From a virus, in IMG/VR virus record IMGVR_UViG_3300047095_000877, positions 1 to 55,822 of that record: DNA of 55,822 nt; one strand, given 5' to 3'. The notes beneath the pieces are model-generated. The model was not told where the DNA came from, searched no databases, and saw nothing but the letters and a program-made list of their open reading frames with translations. Below are positions 11,760 through 39,717 of the stretch, piece by piece. A program made the translations under genes and the position numbers. The stretch's first letter is position 1, and the number at the start of each line of letters is the position of its first letter.

Positions 11760-11833
11760 TGGTAGGCCCACTCGGAGTTGAACCGAGATTTGCGAATTAA
11801 AAGTTCGCCACTCTACCGTTGAGTTATGGGCCC
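11760..11833 (-). tRNA. tRNA-Lys (anticodon UUU), CCA encoded
   Basis: A full cloverleaf: a 7-bp acceptor stem (GGGCCCA with TGGGCCT, one G-U pair), D-stem ACTC/GAGT, anticodon stem GCGAA/TTCGC with loop CTTTTAA, T-stem CTCGG/CCGAG with loop TTCAACT, discriminator A and encoded CCA. It could help the phage decode AAA codons. Its position 230 bp from the integrase suggests it is also, or originally was, the attachment site. Confidence 0.93.
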
Positions 11834-12066
11834 GAAAGCTTGCGCGAATACTGCGCGAACGTGATTTCTGCTACTGCCTAACCCCTTGTTTTCACTCACA
11901 AAAATCAGCCTGATCAACTGATTAAAAGTCTCTTTCGGAAGTCTCACGCAACTTCACGCAAACTCATTAAACATCTGATTCATCAACAAGATCCGCTATT
12001 GCGTTTTTCGGCTGATTCGCGCAATTTACCGCAAATTCGCGCAAATCTGCGCGAATAGTGCGCGAA
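11834..12066. other. attP-like field of integrase arm-site repeats
   Basis: A non-coding gap between tRNA-Lys and the integrase. The 19-mer TGCGCGAATACTGCGCGAA (11841-11859) recurs at 12048-12066 with one change (C to G). Each holds two copies of the octamer TGCGCGAA. The inverse, TTCGCGCA, appears at 12016-12023 and 12036-12043. Looser CACGCAA repeats lie near 11944-11962. Repeated short sites on one side of a tRNA next to int are typical of arm-type integrase binding sites. The last copy overlaps the int leader, so it may also control int. Confidence 0.6.
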
Positions 12067-12077
12067 TGGAGGGACGC

Positions 12078-13178
12078 ATGAAACGTGAGTGGAAGCCCGA
12101 TTCAAAGGTCACCGGACTGGGCCTGCTGGTGCTGCCGAGCGGGGTCGAAACCTGGTACCTGCGCTACCGCGAACCGAGCGGCAAGCAGCAGCATCACAAG
12201 ATCGGTCGGGCTGACATCCTCAACCGCACACTGGCCCGCGAAGAGGCGCACAAGATCCTTGCCGCCGTGGCGCGTGGGCATGCACCCACCAGCGCCCGCC
12301 AGGAGCTGCGCCGCGGCCCTGACATGACCGATCTGTACCAGCGCCTGCTGGCCGAGCACTATCCCAAACTGCGGCCGGGCACGGCGAAGAACTACCAGAG
12401 CATCTGGGACGTTCACATCATCCCGAAACTGGGCCGCCAGAAGGTGCAGATGATCACCAGCGCCGACGTGATGCGGCTGCTCTCGCGCATCCGGCCCATC
12501 CAGGCCAACCGGACGCTGGCGGTGCTGCGCAAGGCGTTCAACCTGTCGATCCTGTGGGGCCTGCGAGCGGACAATCCTTGCGCCAAGGTGCCGGCCAACA
12601 CCGAGCGCAAGCGGCGGCGTTATCTGTCAGGCGAAGAGCGGCAGCGGCTGGTGGCCGCACTGGGCGCGATAGCCACCTCGCCACTGCGCTGGCGGTTCGC
12701 TCAACTGGTGCGACTGCTGATGCTGACGGGGTGCCGCGTGAGCGAAATCTGCCGTGCCAGATGGGAGTGGTTCGACGAGAAGGCAGGCTTGCTGGCGATT
12801 CCCGCCGAGCATCACAAAACTGGTGAGCACACTGGCCAAAAACGTGTAGTGCATATTCCTCCTGCAGGAATTCTCATCTTGAGAGAACTGAGACTCAGAT
12901 CGAATACACAATGGATTATCGCAGGGCAGGACGATGGCTATCTGGTGGGGTATCAGAACCTATGGGAAGAGCTGATGGTGCTTGCCGAAATCAAGGATCT
13001 CAAATGCCACGATTTGAGGCACCACTGGGCCTCGGTGGCGATCACCAAGGTCGGCCTGACGCTGCCGCAGGTCGGCAATCTGCTTGGTCACGCCAGCCCG
13101 CTGACCACCAGCCGCTATGCGCACCTGCTCGAGGATGGGGCGCAGGCTATGGCGAGGGCCGTGGCTGATCAGATCTAG
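12078..13178 (+). CDS. int: Tyrosine-type integrase 1
   Basis: A 366-residue phage integrase that would recombine attP with the host attB. The N-terminal arm-binding part has the GLGLLVLPSGVETWYLRYR fold seen in DUF4102-type integrases, followed by a core-binding helical domain (about 95-175). Catalytic residues of the family are visible: R in LMLTGCRVSEICRARW, H-x-x-R in CHDLRHHWAS, and GHASPLTTSRYAHL with the nucleophilic Tyr. The ATG at 12078 has GGAGGG 4 nt upstream; the ATG at 12066 would put the Shine-Dalgarno inside the gene, so 12078 is preferred. Confidence 0.92.
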   Translation: MKREWKPDSKVTGLGLLVLPSGVETWYLRYREPSGKQQHHKIGRADILNRTLAREEAHKILAAVARGHAPTSARQELRRGPDMTDLYQRLLAEHYPKLRPGTAKNYQSIWDVHIIPKLGRQKVQMITSADVMRLLSRIRPIQANRTLAVLRKAFNLSILWGLRADNPCAKVPANTERKRRRYLSGEERQRLVAALGAIATSPLRWRFAQLVRLLMLTGCRVSEICRARWEWFDEKAGLLAIPAEHHKTGEHTGQKRVVHIPPAGILILRELRLRSNTQWIIAGQDDGYLVGYQNLWEELMVLAEIKDLKCHDLRHHWASVAITKVGLTLPQVGNLLGHASPLTTSRYAHLLEDGAQAMARAVADQI

Positions 13179-14777: not shown

Positions 14778-15953
14778 TCACTTTGAGACCAGTACGGCCC
14801 AGCCAGTGCCGGGGCCTTCGATTTCCCACCGGCGCAGCCAGTTCTTGCGGCTGTAACCGATGCCGGCGCCGTTGGCGTTGAGGTAGCCGCCGTTCAGCAG
14901 ATCGCATTCGCCGTAGGGGTCGTTGTGAACGATCTGCGTCGGGTTGAAACCGATCGCCACGGTCCAGTGGCCGCCACCGGTAGGCGCTGCGGCTGTGCCA
15001 TGGTGCAGCCAGCCAACAGCGATGGGCCGGCCGGCTTGGATCTCAGCCTCGAGCTGGGCGATCGAGCACTTCTGAGTGAAACGCGCATTGAGCCCCAGCG
15101 ACTGCAGTGTCTTCACCTGCGCAATGGGCTCGGTGGTGTCGCCGTATTTCGCACGAGCAGCGTTGTACTCGTCGTCGGTTTTGACCTTGCCATAAAAGGC
15201 GGCGATCATTGCGCAGCTCGACGAGAAGCACTCGCGGTAACCCTGGCCGGACTTGTTGTCGCGCTGGCTGAAGTAGGGCACGCCGAGACGCACCGGCTCC
15301 TCCGGCATCTCGTCCATGTCCTGAAGCCAGAGATCGCCTTCGGCCTTGCGGCGGCGCTTCAGGCCGGCTTCAACGCTGGTGCCGGGATTGCGGTAGAGCA
15401 ACATCGCTGCGGGCACATCCTTCCAGCGCTTGTCGCGCAATGCACCGCTGATGGTTTTGAAGCCCTCGGTGCCGTAGAAGCCTGAGCCAAGGTTGTAGGC
15501 AAAGGAGATCAGCGCGGACTTCTGACAGTCGCCCATCTCCTTCCAGAAGGGGACGGTGGTGCCCAGCTTGGCGGCAATGCGATCGACCTCCTGGCGCAGG
15601 AGCATGTCGGCCTCGATCGCGTTGATCTTGTCGCCCTTCTGCACCTTGCGCCCGTCGTTGTAGCGGGTGGTGCCGTAGCCGATCGTGGCCACGTTCCAGC
15701 CGTGCAGCGGATCTGGGTACGCCTCGAGGTGACAGCCCTCGAATGACTTGATGATGGCAAGCGCCGGAGCCAGGTCAGCCTGCTTGCCGTCTTGGCTCCA
15801 CGTAGCAAACCACGGCCTATCGCGACGCATCGCGGCGGCGTAGCCGTTTTCGCGCAAGTCGTTCTGCAGCTCTACGACGGCCGCCGCCTGATGGGGCAGG
15901 GCTTTGTAGTAGCGGAACAGCTGCTCGAGACTGATCGGGGCGGCGTTGCTCAC
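14778..15953 (-). CDS. Bifunctional endolysin: GH24 lysozyme plus C39-like peptidase
   Basis: A 391-residue lysis enzyme with two domains. Residues about 60-205 are a GH24 muramidase with E72, D81 and T90 in the E-D-T triad pattern (FEGCHLEAYPDP, then TIGYGTT). Residues about 220-391 resemble a papain-like C39-type peptidase: catalytic Cys in ECFSSSCAM, His in GGHWTVAIGF, and Asp/Asn in HNDPYGE. It would cut both glycan and peptide parts of the wall. It starts at GTG 15953 just after a tiny membrane gene. No signal peptide is evident, so a holin would be needed. Confidence 0.88.
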   Translation of the reverse strand: MSNAAPISLEQLFRYYKALPHQAAAVVELQNDLRENGYAAAMRRDRPWFATWSQDGKQADLAPALAIIKSFEGCHLEAYPDPLHGWNVATIGYGTTRYNDGRKVQKGDKINAIEADMLLRQEVDRIAAKLGTTVPFWKEMGDCQKSALISFAYNLGSGFYGTEGFKTISGALRDKRWKDVPAAMLLYRNPGTSVEAGLKRRRKAEGDLWLQDMDEMPEEPVRLGVPYFSQRDNKSGQGYRECFSSSCAMIAAFYGKVKTDDEYNAARAKYGDTTEPIAQVKTLQSLGLNARFTQKCSIAQLEAEIQAGRPIAVGWLHHGTAAAPTGGGHWTVAIGFNPTQIVHNDPYGECDLLNGGYLNANGAGIGYSRKNWLRRWEIEGPGTGWAVLVSK

Positions 15954-17260: not shown

Positions 17261-18154
17261 TCAAAGCTCAGGGATTTCGTATTCCTGCGTGGTGTTGCAG
17301 TAATGCTTAAAGATAACTTCACTTGTGTTTCCTGCCCACGCTGCCACCTGTGGCACCGGAATTCCTGCCTCGATCCAGCGGCTGATCGCCGTGTGGCGAC
17401 AGTCGTACGGCCGATAAAGGTGGGAAATCAGTCCTGCCATGTGTAGCGGAGCAAGCTTCTTGCGAAAGTAGCTCTGAAATGCGAGGCGGTTCCACGGGAA
17501 GACGAACCTGTCCTCACGGGGCAGGTTTTGCAAGATCGCTTTGCACTTGGAGTTCAACGGAACCCACCGCTTCTTGTTGGTTTTCGTGCTTTCCTTCAGG
17601 CCGTGCGTCAGCGTGTAGTTGCGATGCACCAGCACTCGGCCGTCTTGGATGTCGTCCCAGCACATGGCCCGGACCTCGCCAGTGCGCATGGCGGTCTGCA
17701 GCATGAACTCTGCAAATAGCGACCAATCCACTTCGCGGTAGGTGAGCTTTGCAGTCAGTGCTGTGAGCACCAGCGCGATCTCGTGCCGAGGGATCACGGT
17801 GATCTCGCAGCTTTTCTGCGGCGCCTTGGGCATCCTGAAGTTGGCGACCGGGTTGCCGCTGATCAGGCCAACGTCTTCAGCGCACGCCCAGCGGTACATG
17901 CTGCGCACATACATGCACACGCGCCTAGCGGTGAGGATCGGCTTCTGCTGCAGCACCCAGATCAACACCTGCCGCCCTTGGGCAAGGTCTTGGATTGGGC
18001 AGCGCCCCATCCACTTCGTCACCTGCCGGTAGTCGCTAGTGAGGCTGGTGGGGCAGAGCGAGATGCTGCGCTCTTGCAAGAACATCGCCCACACTTCGGA
18101 AACTGTGTGAGCGCAAACGGGCGCAGCGGTCTGCGAGCGATAGGCTTCGGCCAT
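17261..18154 (-). CDS. Tyrosine-type integrase 2
   Basis: A 297-residue tyrosine recombinase, shorter than and unlike integrase 1. An N-terminal SAM-like domain (about 15-100) is followed by the catalytic domain: TAMRTGEVRAMCWDD with the first Arg, KRWVPLN, YDCRHTAISRW with R-H, AGNTSEVIFKHYCN with the nucleophilic Tyr. The usual first His of the HxxR box is Tyr here and the late His/Trp is Asn, yet the pattern fits active integrases known to me from cyanophages. Start at ATG 18154; an in-frame TTG lies at 18163. Confidence 0.87.
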   Translation of the reverse strand: MAEAYRSQTAAPVCAHTVSEVWAMFLQERSISLCPTSLTSDYRQVTKWMGRCPIQDLAQGRQVLIWVLQQKPILTARRVCMYVRSMYRWACAEDVGLISGNPVANFRMPKAPQKSCEITVIPRHEIALVLTALTAKLTYREVDWSLFAEFMLQTAMRTGEVRAMCWDDIQDGRVLVHRNYTLTHGLKESTKTNKKRWVPLNSKCKAILQNLPREDRFVFPWNRLAFQSYFRKKLAPLHMAGLISHLYRPYDCRHTAISRWIEAGIPVPQVAAWAGNTSEVIFKHYCNTTQEYEIPEL

Positions 18155-18252
18155 CGGGTCCAATACAGCTGGATCTGATCACGGGTCAGGCGGGTGCAAC
18201 CGCGCTGGCCCACTCCATGCCTAGCACAACGCTCGCAGCGTAGATACCGCGA

Positions 18253-35616: not shown

Positions 35617-35755
35617 TGCTCGTTACCTCAGGAGTTGCGTGAGCAGGGGTGACAGCCGGCTCAGTCCGCTCGATGAGCTTCCGCTTGCCGGACTTGGGGT
35701 CCAGGAGGTAAGTGCCTCCTTGCCCATGGTATTGATCGATTGTGATAGCCATCAT
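35573..35755 (-). CDS. Small tail-module protein
   Basis: A 60-residue protein (MAITIDQYHGQGGTYLLDPK, then SGKRKLIERTEPAV) with a disordered Pro/Ala/Ser-rich tail. Start at ATG 35755 (or 35752), overlapping the upstream stop (TGATG), and it overlaps the tail tube start by 44 nt. Small proteins in this place are common in such tail modules, but their function is unknown. Confidence 0.6.
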   Translation of the reverse strand: MMAITIDQYHGQGGTYLLDPKSGKRKLIERTEPAVTPAHATPEVTSNAAPDSQAPDSGES

Positions 35756-36177
35756 CAAGCCGCCAAGTTGGTGACAGAGGACCTGTACCGCACAAGGTAA
35801 TCGCACATGACGACGCCTGCCGGTTGATCAGCCTCGACTGTTTGGAACTCTACTCGTTGTGGCTGAATATCCATGGCGAGACCGCCAAGGGTCAGGTCAG
35901 CCATCAATTTGCTGTGCAGTGATTCCACAATCGGATCTGCAGCCTGGTCCGGGATGTTGGCACGCACCACCACTGCAATCCGCACAGTCAGCGACCAGTC
36001 CAGTGTTGGCAAGCTGGTGTTCTGCTGGGCAACGTCCTCGATCGGCTCGACAACAATCGCCGGGCTCTCTTGTCTCGCCATCGGCTCGACCCTGCTGCGA
36101 TAGATGCGCGCCGCTACGCCGGTCGTTCCGGTCAGCGCCGTGCGGATTGCAGCAAGGATCTGTTCGCGCTTGGTCAT
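35755..36177 (-). CDS. Tail terminator-like protein (lambda gpU-type)
   Basis: A 140-residue protein with a tail-terminator or minor tail look: REQILAAIRTALTGTTGVAA, ARIYRSRVEPMARQESPAIV, then LDWSLTVRIAVVVRANIPDQ and VVMCDYLVRYRS. Placed between head-joining and tail tube genes. The family caps the tail tube and sets its length. Confidence 0.78.
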   Translation of the reverse strand: MTKREQILAAIRTALTGTTGVAARIYRSRVEPMARQESPAIVVEPIEDVAQQNTSLPTLDWSLTVRIAVVVRANIPDQAADPIVESLHSKLMADLTLGGLAMDIQPQRVEFQTVEADQPAGVVMCDYLVRYRSSVTNLAA

Positions 36178-36263: not shown

Positions 36264-36701
36264 TCAGTAGCTGCCCTCATCAATCGTGGAAGCATCAACC
36301 CAGGCCGTGCCGTTGTTCACCAGCAAATCACCAGACTGAGCACTGGTCAGCTCAACATCAGCCAAGTCACCTAGGCCAAATTCTTGCTTCGCATTGGGCT
36401 GGCCGCCTGGCGCAAGCTGGCCAGTAGCAAGCTTGCTTAGGCTCACCTCACACATCTGACCGTCATCAATCAGCCGGGTCTCTCTCACCTGATACGCAAC
36501 GCCCGCAACGGTGATGCCATCGCCGTAAATCAGCGTGCCAAAGTCCACCGCACGACAAGTCAGCGTGTAATCGGTGGTCAGCACCATGCCGTCGGCCACC
36601 ACCTGGCTTGGCATGTCCAGAATGCCCTTGGCCGTCACCGCGCCAGCAGTGCAGGTGACGCCAAAGTCTTCAAGGAACAGGTTTAGGTCTTCGGTGATCA
36701 C
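36264..36701 (-). CDS. Head-tail joining protein (lambda FII-like) with fibre-like tail
   Basis: A 145-residue protein. Residues 1-100 resemble the gpFII family: LEDFGVTCTAGAVTAKGILD, TLTCRAVDFGTLIYGDGITV, YQVRETRLIDDGQMCEVSLS. The C-terminal 35 residues (GDLADVELTSAQSGDLLVNN, ending GTAWVDASTIDEGSY) use the NG-x-AW motif of this phage's fibre proteins. So it is an FII-like protein with an appended surface-type segment. Its ATG overlaps the GH130-like stop (ATGA). Confidence 0.72.
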   Translation of the reverse strand: MITEDLNLFLEDFGVTCTAGAVTAKGILDMPSQVVADGMVLTTDYTLTCRAVDFGTLIYGDGITVAGVAYQVRETRLIDDGQMCEVSLSKLATGQLAPGGQPNAKQEFGLGDLADVELTSAQSGDLLVNNGTAWVDASTIDEGSY

Positions 36702-37714
36702 AGCGGCACCGCCTTCTGTCGTGCAATCAGGCTAGCCGCATCGCTCGCCAGCACCGCAACCTCAGTCCCAGCCCAGGCTGGCTGACCCTTGATCATCACG
36801 TCACCAGTCAGCCGGATCCGCACCTCGCCGCGGTGACTTACCGTCGGGGAAATCTGGCGCAGATTCTCCACCCTGATCGCGTCAACCGCGCAGTGAAGGT
36901 CGTTGCGGCCATACGCAATCAGCGCCTTGTGCCCGCTTACCTCAAGCCCGCCGGGAAACACGCACAGCGGCTGCCAACGCGTCTCGCAGTCGGGAACACC
37001 CCACTCCTCCTTAGCTGTCAGCACCGGCGCGCTCGACACCATCATCGGTGCATGCGGCGCCGTCGCGGCAAACGTCAGCCACGCTGCGTGGTACAGCCGG
37101 CTGCGGCGCGGGTGTTTCTCCCAGCTATGGAACATCGTCAGCTTCTGGCCTTGCCAGTCGACCGCCGGCGTGCCGCCGCTCATCCGTCCCCAGCGCCAGC
37201 GCACGGGAGCGCTGCGCCATTCCTGCACCACCTCGTCGCCCTCGAGCTCGAGCACCGTCCAGCCGGCAGCGCCCATGTCATAGACGCACCGCAGCGCGCC
37301 CTCAGCCTCGAAGAACGTCCAGTTCTTCTCCTTGCTGCTCCAGTCGTTGGCGCCGTATTTCGGCACCCAAACCTTCGCCAGGCTCCACGTCTTGCCCTTC
37401 TTGGCCAGCTTTCCGTACGCCTGCACGCACTTCCAGCCCTCCTTCAGGCCGTAGCGGGCGATGGAAAACGCGATGTACGTACATTCGCCGTACACAAAAA
37501 GTCGTGGATCCTCGAGTGAGCACCCCTTTTCGACACCCGGCACCTTCAGCCGTTGATTGCGCAGCACGTTGCGCGCACCATCCATCTCGGCCAGCACGAT
37601 CTCGCTGACCTTGAAGTCTTCCGGCTCAGACCGGTATGCCAAGAGAAAGCCCTCCCCAGAGCGAACCAGGGAGGGGTTGTAGTTTCGCTTGGCCTGAATC
37701 AGCCCAGCGATCAT
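36698..37714 (-). CDS. GH130-like beta-propeller protein fused to small C-terminal domain
   Basis: A 338-residue protein. Residues 1-285 resemble the five-bladed propeller of glycoside hydrolase family 130 and related glycosidases: KRNYNPSLVRSGEGFLLAYR, CSLEDPRLFVYGECTYIAFS, NWTFFEAEGALRCVYDMGAA, MSGGTPAV, LVYDP-like positions and VPDCETRWQPLCVFPGGLEV. Residues 285-338 resemble a small head-module domain (DUF7210-like). It sits between the capsid and head-tail joining genes, so it may be a virion glycan-acting or glycan-binding protein. Catalytic competence is unclear. Start at ATG 37714, 2 nt after the capsid gene stop. Confidence 0.65.
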   Translation of the reverse strand: MIAGLIQAKRNYNPSLVRSGEGFLLAYRSEPEDFKVSEIVLAEMDGARNVLRNQRLKVPGVEKGCSLEDPRLFVYGECTYIAFSIARYGLKEGWKCVQAYGKLAKKGKTWSLAKVWVPKYGANDWSSKEKNWTFFEAEGALRCVYDMGAAGWTVLELEGDEVVQEWRSAPVRWRWGRMSGGTPAVDWQGQKLTMFHSWEKHPRRSRLYHAAWLTFAATAPHAPMMVSSAPVLTAKEEWGVPDCETRWQPLCVFPGGLEVSGHKALIAYGRNDLHCAVDAIRVENLRQISPTVSHRGEVRIRLTGDVMIKGQPAWAGTEVAVLASDAASLIARQKAVPL

Positions 37715-37716
37715 GC

Positions 37717-39717
37717 TCAGGACAGAGCGCCGGTGCCGTAGCAGAAGGCGCCAGCTTGCTTCACAGCGAAGTCCACATCCTGCAGAGCAATGATGCGAAC
37801 GGTGCCGCTGGTGGCGCCGGCGTAAGGATCCAGGGTCAGATCCAGACCGGACCACAGGCCCATGATCATCTGGTCGAAGGCACCGAAGATGATGTCGTCG
37901 AAGGCCAGCTGGTTGGAGATCACGGCGGGGTAGCCGTTCACTTCGTTGTTCTCGTACACGAAGCCAGCAGCCACAGCAGAGGCAGACTTGGCGGTCGACT
38001 TCAGAGCGCCGCGGGCAGCAGCGTTCATCAGGTAGAACAGCGAGCCGGCGTCGGCGTTGTCCTTGGCCACCTCGGTCTCCATGTCGATCAGCTCGGCGAA
38101 GGTGCCGTAGCCGGTCAGAGCCTTGGTGTTGATGCCAACGGTGTTCACCAGACCGAGGGGCTGGTTGCTGGAGCCGGAGCCGTAGATGCCAGCGCGGTCG
38201 ATCTCAAGAGCGATCACGCGAGCCAGGTCGTTGCGCACCATCTGCTCCACGTCGATGGAGCTCTGGAGCAGCAGGCGGCGGCTGTAATCCACGAAGGCGC
38301 CCACGGTCTTGGGCGACATGGTCACCTGGCCGAGGGTTTCCTGGCTCTCGGTAGGAGCAGAGCCTTCACCGACCCAGTAGGCAGTGGCAGCGCCGGTCTG
38401 CTTGGGGATGGCGATGTTGCCCTGCAGGCCGTTGAGCACGGTGGCGCCCACGTTGGCCAGAGCCAGCTTGTTGCGGAGCAGCTCGATAAACGAACCGGCC
38501 AGCAGGTCGGTGGCAACCAGGTTGCCGCCGGCGGTTGCGGTGCCGACGTTCAGGTCACGACGGAGCACCTCGTTGGGCACCATCAGACCGTTGGCGGGCT
38601 TGCCGTAAGCCTTGGCAGCAGCGTCAGAAACCTCACGCTCGAAAGCGGCGGCTTCGGCGGCCTGCTTGTCGCCAGGGTTGGCGAGATAGTTCAGGGCGCG
38701 CAGGAAGGAGTAGCTGCGGGTCTCCTTCTCGTTCAGGCCGACCTCGGAGGTCGATTCGATGCGGTGCTCCACTTTGGTGCTGCGGGTGTCGATTTTTTCG
38801 AGGAAGGCAGCACGGGCCTCGTCGAGGCTGCGGCCACCGTCAATCAGTTCGCGTGCAAGCTCGGTCATGCCGTGCTTGTCGCCGAGGGCGGTGATGGATG
38901 CGATACGGCTACGCTCGGCCTCGACGGCCTTGGACCGGATCACCTCCACGTCAGGGGTGGTGTTCTCCATGTGAACCTCAGGTTCTTGAGGGGTTGGTGA
39001 TGCGGCGGTGGCCGCAGAGTCGATCGCAAGCGACCGGCCGATTCCGATAGTCGGATCTGCAGGCACACTAACAACCGAAACTTCGTACGGACTCCAACGA
39101 GTGGCTACGAAGTTGTCGCCACGCTCCTCCATCTTGTCGATGGCATAACCAAAGCTGACGCCCCGAAGAACGCCATCCTTGACATCAGCCATCACCTCCT
39201 TGGCGAAGCTGTTGCGGGAGAAGCGGACCTTGACGTAGCCGCGCTTCTTTTCGCCGTCGATCCATGCTCGCTCAACGACGCCCACTACCCGATCAGGGTT
39301 GTGGTTGAAGAGGAGCGGAGCACCGTCATTAAGACGGGCCAGATCAGCGGCGTCACCCTCGTGACTCAGCACTTCGTTTCCGAAGTACCGGGCCACGGGG
39401 TATTCGGAACTGAAGGGAAACTCGAATGAGCGGTCTTCAACTTCGGCAAAAGCAGTGACTTCGGTGCGCTGGTATTTGCCCTCAAGCTTGCGCTCCTCCA
39501 CCTCGGGCATGGCTTCTTCAGCCATTTCTTCTGCCTCAGTTTCTTCCTCGGGGTCTTCGCCCTGCAGGATTTCCATGGTGTCTTCCACCACTTCCATCAT
39601 GTGCTCAGCTACAACCTGAGCCACGGCGTCACCGACGACAGCTACTTGTTCTTCGGTCAGATCAGCTAGTGCGCGATCTTCCACGGGTGTCTGGTTTTGT
39701 TCTTTGAGTTCGTCCAT
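37717..39717 (-). CDS. Prohead protease - major capsid protein fusion (HK97 type)
   Basis: A 666-residue polyprotein. Residues 1-75 are acidic and scaffold-like. Residues about 75-245 are the HK97 prohead protease: LLFNHNPDRVVGVVERAW with the catalytic His and GVLRGVSFGYAI with the Ser. Residues about 290-666 form the HK97-fold capsid protein: NYLANPGDKQAAEAAAFERE as delta domain, then GGNLVATDLLAGSFIELLRN, GQVTMSPKTVGAFVDYSRRL, IYGSGSSNQPLGLVN. The fused order implies self-processing during capsid maturation. It overlaps the portal stop by one base. Confidence 0.92.
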   Translation of the reverse strand: MDELKEQNQTPVEDRALADLTEEQVAVVGDAVAQVVAEHMMEVVEDTMEILQGEDPEEETEAEEMAEEAMPEVEERKLEGKYQRTEVTAFAEVEDRSFEFPFSSEYPVARYFGNEVLSHEGDAADLARLNDGAPLLFNHNPDRVVGVVERAWIDGEKKRGYVKVRFSRNSFAKEVMADVKDGVLRGVSFGYAIDKMEERGDNFVATRWSPYEVSVVSVPADPTIGIGRSLAIDSAATAASPTPQEPEVHMENTTPDVEVIRSKAVEAERSRIASITALGDKHGMTELARELIDGGRSLDEARAAFLEKIDTRSTKVEHRIESTSEVGLNEKETRSYSFLRALNYLANPGDKQAAEAAAFEREVSDAAAKAYGKPANGLMVPNEVLRRDLNVGTATAGGNLVATDLLAGSFIELLRNKLALANVGATVLNGLQGNIAIPKQTGAATAYWVGEGSAPTESQETLGQVTMSPKTVGAFVDYSRRLLLQSSIDVEQMVRNDLARVIALEIDRAGIYGSGSSNQPLGLVNTVGINTKALTGYGTFAELIDMETEVAKDNADAGSLFYLMNAAARGALKSTAKSASAVAAGFVYENNEVNGYPAVISNQLAFDDIIFGAFDQMIMGLWSGLDLTLDPYAGATSGTVRIIALQDVDFAVKQAGAFCYGTGALS

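What the first reader, a model, noticed from the sequence alone, without database searches (positions are those of the whole stretch)
36698..37714. GH130-like propeller gene inside the head module, fused to a small head-module domain
The sequence motifs fit a five-bladed glycosidase/phosphorylase propeller, which is not a normal component between capsid and head-tail joining genes. The C-terminal 50 residues look like a small head-module domain usually encoded alone. It may decorate heads with a glycan-binding or glycan-modifying domain, or be an auxiliary metabolic gene.
Basis: partly seen in the sequence, partly recalled or inferred. Interest (0 to 1): 0.68.

Follow-up and report, generated by a model that had tools for sequence, protein, structure and literature searches.

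The report
Sugar-enzyme propeller replaces phage cement protein
In one clade of uncultured phages, the gene slot next to the capsid gene that normally makes a small protein and a capsid 'cement' protein instead makes one fusion protein carrying a sugar-processing propeller domain, which suggests that these phages may coat their heads with a glycan-binding or glycan-cutting module.

Summary
The gene is on the minus strand (37714 to 36698, 338 aa). Its predicted fold is a five-bladed GH130 propeller (residues 1 to about 290; the 21 best solved structures are GH130, Z 22-26). Residues of the known GH130 active site are kept in the clade: Asn13, Arg28, Glu68-Asp69, Lys130, His196, Asp272. One position where phosphorylases have Arg is Asp146. 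The last ~47 residues are homologous to a 67-82 aa protein that relatives encode alone just after the same capsid gene. Those relatives then carry a second gene, a jellyroll like the cement protein of phage BPP-1. The two arrangements exclude each other: 21 of 21 propeller records lack the cement gene, and 12 of 12 checked relatives without the propeller have it. On the capsid-protein tree the propeller phages form one clade nested among cement carriers. So one lineage replaced a two-gene cement cassette by one propeller fusion and kept it under purifying selection. Best reading: a head-associated protein carrying a glycan-active propeller, anchored by the small domain. Fold, fusion and replacement are shown by computation. 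Presence in the virion, glycan target and catalysis are inferred. No similar gene was found in 50,697 phage records. 'Metabolic gene' and 'assembly factor' readings remain open.

The parts
36698..37714 (-). whole fusion gene, 338 aa: GH130-like propeller + small head-module domain
36845..37714 (-). five-bladed GH130-like propeller, residues 1 to about 290
   Evidence: AF2 model, GH130 structures at ranks 1-21, Z 22-26, PF04041 8.1e-6
36701..36841 (-). C-terminal domain (last 47 aa), homologue of the stand-alone ORF after the capsid gene in relatives without the propeller
   Evidence: weak likeness to the C-terminus of lambda gpFI
37717..39717 (-). prohead protease + scaffold + major capsid protein polyprotein; directly upstream, 2 nt gap
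   Evidence: Pfam, PHROG 617
36264..36701 (-). gpFII/Hc1-like head-tail attachment protein, 145 aa, downstream; GTGA overlap with the propeller stop
   Evidence: PF05354 6.6e-10; PHROG
35755..36177 (-). tail terminator (gpU-like), marks the end of the head module
   Evidence: phrog_4204 4.2e-38

Best explanation
It is a head-module protein made by fusing a GH130-type glycan-active propeller in front of a small capsid-module domain. In one phage lineage this fusion replaced a two-gene cassette (small free-standing domain + jellyroll cement protein) between the capsid gene and the head-tail attachment gene. Most likely it is attached to the head, the C-terminal domain being the anchor, and the propeller faces outward as a module that binds, and perhaps cleaves, a mannoside-like glycan on the host surface or in the environment. 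Shown here: place, fold (predicted), fusion, replacement, single origin, purifying selection, conservation of GH130 active-site residues. Inferred: virion presence, anchoring, the glycan and any catalysis.
For: Fold. Fusion with a domain that relatives encode alone at the same place. The gene next to that domain in relatives is a cement-type jellyroll: PF21190 Bbp16 3.1e-5 for one member, BPP-1 cement protein 3j4u_H Z 9.9 and 22% identity, Carin1 capsid 8cjz Z 8.4, Agrobacterium phage 7-7-1 capsid Z 10.6. Mutual exclusion: cement gene in 0 of 21 propeller records and 12 of 12 others; propeller in 21 of 21 and 0 of 12. Single clade of 16 distinct capsid proteins, 100/100, nested among cement carriers, the node joining it to two of them at 94/87. 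The two-gene layout also in isolates S-LBS1 and S-CBS3. Active-site residues kept. dN/dS 0.11-0.26. The protein encoded between capsid gene and FII in lambda, gpFI, is described as bound to the prohead gpE lattice (PMC4856287, passages). Glycan-binding domains on a phage capsid have precedent in phage Douge (PMC13033339, passages).
Against: No proteomics or capsid structure. A propeller and a jellyroll need not do the same job; the capsid may have been stabilised in another way, and the replaced cement role is itself inferred from fold. The top structural hits of the cement gene are non-cement prophage proteins (YomS Z 11.9, XepA Z 11.6). The link of the small domain to gpFI is weak (24 columns, 50% probability; single-sequence comparison not significant and no better than lambda gpD). 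The nearest remote phage relatives sit in glycosyltransferase clusters, not head modules. The basic phosphate-site residues are only partly lost, so hydrolase, phosphorylase or mere binding cannot be told apart. No obvious ribosome site of its own was seen by eye before the start, so copy number is unknown.
Confidence: 0.5

Rival explanations
1. Non-virion enzyme: the propeller acts in the infected cell or lysate on a host glycan or on sugar metabolism (auxiliary metabolic or surface-remodelling gene), and the fusion to the small domain only reflects where the gene landed.
For: GH130 phosphorylases are cytoplasmic according to PMC4599007 (passage); active-site residues are kept; remote phage relatives sit among glycosyltransferases and an aminotransferase.
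Against: The small domain is kept in every complete close member (13 of 13 complete rows of A1) and the gene is fixed in the head operon; the cement gene is missing exactly in this clade, which an unrelated enzyme would not explain.
Confidence: 0.2
2. Head-assembly factor: the fusion works like lambda gpFI or another packaging/assembly chaperone, the propeller being a scaffold surface without glycan function, and it need not stay in the virion.
For: Same gene slot as lambda FI and weak but above-shuffle likeness of the small domain to the FI C-terminus (score 25.5, 0 of 200 column shuffles as high).
Against: Conservation of sugar-binding and catalytic-type residues (N13, R28, E68, D69, K130, H196, D272 in all close rows with a letter there) is not expected if the pocket is unused; FI-like likeness covers only 24 columns.
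Confidence: 0.2
3. Ordinary misreading: a common head protein that only looks like GH130.
For: It is the standard gene of this place within its own clade; Pfam score lies just under the cut-off.
Against: Confident model with GH130 as the whole top of the structure list, profile-profile E 1.9e-11 to bacterial GH130, no PHROG at all, no match in phage records.
Confidence: 0.03

Closest known systems
CAZy GH130 (beta-mannoside phosphorylases and inverting beta-1,2-mannosidases; BT3780, UhgbMP, Teth514_1788)
   Same: Five-bladed propeller, about 265 residues superposed at about 2.8-3.5 A; Asn, Arg, Glu-Asp and Asp equivalent to BT3780 N74, R89, E141-D142 and D363 (residue roles from PMC4599007).
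   Different: Only 11-18% identity to eight plasmid-borne GH130 proteins in an alignment; Pfam score under cut-off; Asp146 where the phosphorylases compared have Arg; fused to a phage head domain; encoded in a head operon.
GT108 mannosyltransferases/phosphorylases of Leishmania (MPT-1, -2, -4; the GT108 label is recalled)
   Same: Same propeller fold, Z 21-22.
   Different: Ranked below all GH130 rows; GDP-mannose use not testable here.
Jellyroll cement protein of Bordetella phage BPP-1 (Bbp16) and its kin
   Same: Its kind occupies the same gene slot in sister phages.
   Different: Different fold; the propeller protein is the replacement, not a homologue.
Lambda gpFI
   Same: Gene lies between capsid gene and FII; weak likeness to the C-terminal segment of FI.
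   Different: FI has an N-terminal segment of another kind in place of the propeller; homology not firmly shown.
Glycan-binding capsid domains such as the MCP Ig-like domains of mycobacteriophage Douge
   Same: A capsid coated with glycan-binding modules (PMC13033339, passages).
   Different: Ig-like fold inside the MCP, no enzyme-type active site.

Membership tests
GH130 | five-bladed beta-propeller fold | tested here: met
   model pLDDT 86; ranks 1-21 are GH130 structures, Z 22.4-26.2
GH130 | score over the Pfam PF04041 curated cut-off | tested here: not met
   25.4 bits against 26; 15.7 bits in the genome search; but profile-profile E 1.9e-11 to bacterial GH130
GH130 | invariant Asp, candidate catalytic acid, in an E-D-P-R context | tested here: met
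   D69 in 14 of 14 close rows with a letter there and in both remote rows; equals D142 of BT3780 (PMC4599007)
GH130 | mannose-binding Asn and Asp (BT3780 N74, D363) | tested here: met
   N13 and D272 invariant in all 13 rows of A5
GH130 phosphorylase branch | all basic phosphate-site residues | tested here: not met
   K130, R177, H196 basic, but D146 replaces the Arg present in 7 of 8 bacterial rows; names of the phosphate residues recalled, matched by numbering
GH130 hydrolase branch | two Glu replacing the basic residues (BT3780 E227, E268) | tested here: inconclusive
   Asp146 lies within one residue of E227; nothing acidic at E268 (R177/S179)
GH130 | activity on beta-mannosides | not testable with these tools
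   needs enzyme assay
BPP-1-type cement protein | jellyroll fold | tested here: not met
   propeller; the jellyroll is the gene it replaces
phage head decoration protein | present on the assembled head | not testable with these tools
   no virion data
phage head decoration protein | encoded next to the capsid gene in the slot of a cement gene | tested here: met
lambda gpFI (C-terminal domain) | significant sequence homology | tested here: inconclusive
   hhalign 50% probability over 24 columns, 0 of 200 column shuffles as high; E 0.08 against single lambda FI, gpD control 0.09

The most novel reading that the evidence does not exclude
These phages carry a capsid coat made of an active glycan-cleaving enzyme: a GH130-type propeller in many copies per head replaced the structural cement protein, so the head itself binds and trims host-surface or environmental mannoside glycans, turning the whole particle, not only the tail tip, into a glycan-processing surface.
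Probability: 0.2. Interest if true: 0.82.

Novelty: new variant of a known kind. Interest (0 to 1): 0.6.

Why it matters
It is a natural swap experiment: related capsids built either with a jellyroll cement protein or with a catalytic-type propeller fusion in its slot. If the propeller is on the head, it would show that a capsid-stabilising part can be exchanged for a glycan-active enzyme domain, and would add an enzyme-derived module to the known glycan-binding capsid decorations. It also gives a direct test of what the small proteins encoded between the capsid gene and FII do.

Tried and rejected
No GH130-like match in 50,697 phage records with the window protein or with L025. Two scans of bacterial and archaeal genome contigs found no relative; these rest on short peptide patterns, so distant bacterial kin are not excluded, and the origin of the propeller stays unknown. 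No NCBIfam or PHROG match. PDB sequence search with the single protein gave only a chance hit; with the alignment it gave GH130. PDB searches with the small domain gave only chance hits. Pfam for the small domain: only sub-threshold DUF7210/DUF7302. Hypothesis that the small domain is the C-terminal domain of lambda gpFI: suggestive, not accepted. Rejected: cement gene merely moved elsewhere in propeller phages (0 of 21, though most records are fragments; 11 of the 21 are longer than 40 kb). Rejected: several independent swaps (needs one change). Rejected: my first alignment of BT3780 Lys199; the multiple alignment A5 places another Lys of its relative L121 there, and one search shows the true one in a CKSGS stretch, so the match of K130 to Lys199 is motif-based only. 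A second head-module case, L025 (a GH130 protein right after a Mu-type portal), is a single 5.4-kb contig and was not counted as support. Host not identified. Searches of open papers for GH130 in phages, and for a propeller or enzyme as decoration protein (listings only), showed no report of this arrangement by title or abstract; absence from print is not claimed beyond these searches.

Full report
1. What is there. The ORF at 36698-37714 is on the minus strand and codes for 338 residues. It starts two bases after the stop of a protease-scaffold-capsid polyprotein (37717-39717; Peptidase_S78 2.7e-10, Phage_capsid 1.6e-48) and its stop overlaps the start of a gpFII-like attachment protein (36264-36701; PF05354 6.6e-10). 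Further on follow a tail terminator and a tail tube protein. The record is a 55,822-base uncultured virus contig with one copy of the gene.

2. Fold. Pfam gives only GH130 (PF04041, E 8.1e-6, 25.4 bits, cut-off 26); PHROGs and NCBIfam give nothing. A model from 17 aligned rows has pLDDT 86 and pTM 0.78. Foldseek puts GH130 enzymes first (9fj8, E 4.8e-10). In the re-alignment of 993 chains the first 21 entries are GH130 structures (best 4udg, Z 26.2, rmsd 2.8 A, 267 residues, 15% identity; entries titled only 'putative glycoside hydrolase' or 'predicted glycosidase' are counted as GH130 from their similarity to BT3780 or UhgbMP), then Leishmania mannosyltransferases/phosphorylases (Z 20.5-22.3), then a GalNAc deacetylase and GH43 enzymes. 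A profile of the family finds GH130 chains in the PDB (7fip 4.7e-8) and matches an alignment of eight plasmid-borne bacterial GH130 proteins (E 1.9e-11 over 257 columns).

3. Active site. Against these eight proteins and BT3780 (through its relative L121), N13, R28, E68-D69, F253 and D272 stand where BT3780 has N74, R89, E141-D142, F344 and D363, whose roles are given in PMC4599007 (passages and section 20). K130 probably stands where that enzyme has the linkage-determining K199, but that match is by motif. In the close family each of these residues is kept in every row that has a letter (14 of 14 or 15 of 15). At the position where 7 of 8 bacterial rows have Arg the close phage rows have Asp146 (15 of 15; the two remote rows have Asn and Lys). 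R177 and H196 stay basic. So the pocket is kept, but it is neither a clean phosphorylase nor a clean hydrolase signature. Propeller dN/dS against the window copy is 0.11-0.26 in 12 pairs.

4. The C-terminal domain. I fetched 61 viral loci with relatives of the capsid gene and examined the 49 whose capsid gene end is present (12 were cut short and left out; a few loci come from the same or nearly identical contigs). In 19 the propeller gene follows directly. In the other 30, blastp finds a short ORF similar to the window's last 53 residues in 21 at E<=0.01; an ORF of that size and place exists in 29 of 30, the exception having 34 bases left. The profile of 17 such stand-alone proteins matches the profile of 14 fused C-termini with 96% probability, E 3.2e-9. 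The stand-alone forms carry a Pro/Glu/Lys-rich tail that the fusion lacks.

5. What the fusion replaced. In 28 of the 30 the short ORF is followed by a 125-137 aa gene (the other two contigs end too early). One member matches Pfam Bbp16, the BPP-1 cement protein, at 3.1e-5 (under its cut-off, the others weaker or none). The family's model (pLDDT 82.5) matches BPP-1 cement protein 3j4u_H (Z 9.9, 22% identity), Carin1 capsid 8cjz (8.4), Agrobacterium phage 7-7-1 capsid (10.6) and an Agrobacterium phage Milano entry (10.7); prophage proteins YomS (11.9) and XepA (11.6) rank above. The BPP-1 cement protein is a jellyroll that decorates and stabilises the shell (PMC3863775, passages). Isolated cyanophages S-LBS1 and S-CBS3 have the same small ORF and jellyroll gene. 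Searching whole records, the jellyroll gene is in 0 of 21 propeller records and in 12 of 12 others chosen from the 30; the propeller is in 21 of 21 and in 0 of those 12, where only the small domain answers, in 5. Many records are fragments.

6. History. A tree of 41 distinct capsid proteins puts the 16 propeller carriers on one side of a 100/100 branch, within the capsid family of the cement carriers; the node joining them to L036 and L064 has 94/87. One replacement explains the data; its direction rests on this nesting (midpoint root) and on the cyanophage layout.

7. Mechanism. Inferred: the C-terminal domain binds the head, and the propeller works outside on a mannoside-like glycan. In lambda the gene in this place, gpFI, is described as bound to the prohead capsid lattice (PMC4856287, passages). 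The small domain resembles the gpFI C-terminus more than column shuffles do (25.5 against at most 17.3 in 200; 24 columns, 50% probability), but comparisons with the single lambda protein are not significant (controls 105, 106). I treat this as a lead. Capsid-borne glycan binding is known from phage Douge (PMC13033339, passages), with another fold.

8. Relatives elsewhere. Close relatives: 20 viral contigs of 66-100% identity. Remote ones (about 26-28%) are 448-684 aa proteins in large phage contigs among glycosyltransferases, one fused to a glycosyltransferase domain. One 5.4-kb contig (L025) has a GH130 protein (5.4e-11) directly after a Mu-type portal gene. BFVD likewise gives an uncultured phage protein and giant-virus proteins as best matches.

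9. Verdict. New here are the swap with a cement cassette, its single origin and the retained active site. Virion presence and function need experiments.

Noticed in passing
36264-36400 (minus), C-terminus of the FII-like protein: A roughly 50-residue extension with a fibre-like LADVELTSAQSGDLLVNNGTAWV stretch (weak tail-fibre PHROG match). It is present or absent in both propeller and cement relatives (FII about 90-98 or 143-159 aa).
   Followed up: partly
L029, L030, L032, L034: N-terminal part of the capsid polyprotein: An insert of about 85-90 aa (KTGDFVSWNSSGGRARGRIEHI...) before the protease, absent from the window and from the two cement relatives compared.
   Followed up: partly
L025:628-3890: Another phage head module with a GH130 protein (PF04041 5.4e-11) right after a Mu-type portal whose C-terminus matches a C39-like peptidase family (DUF3335). 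Single short contig.
   Followed up: partly
L022:2025-9469, L092:3789-5843, L095: Large phage contigs with glycosyltransferase and aminotransferase genes; GH130-like domains stand in them as parts of longer proteins, in L092 fused to a glycosyltransferase.
   Followed up: partly
11760-11833, 12066-13178 and 17261-18163: tRNA-Lys next to one tyrosine integrase, and a second integrase-family protein on the other strand: probably a temperate phage with two recombinase genes.
   Followed up: partly
14778-15953 (minus): Protein joining a phage lysozyme domain to a C39-like peptidase domain (PF00959 + PF13529).
   Followed up: no
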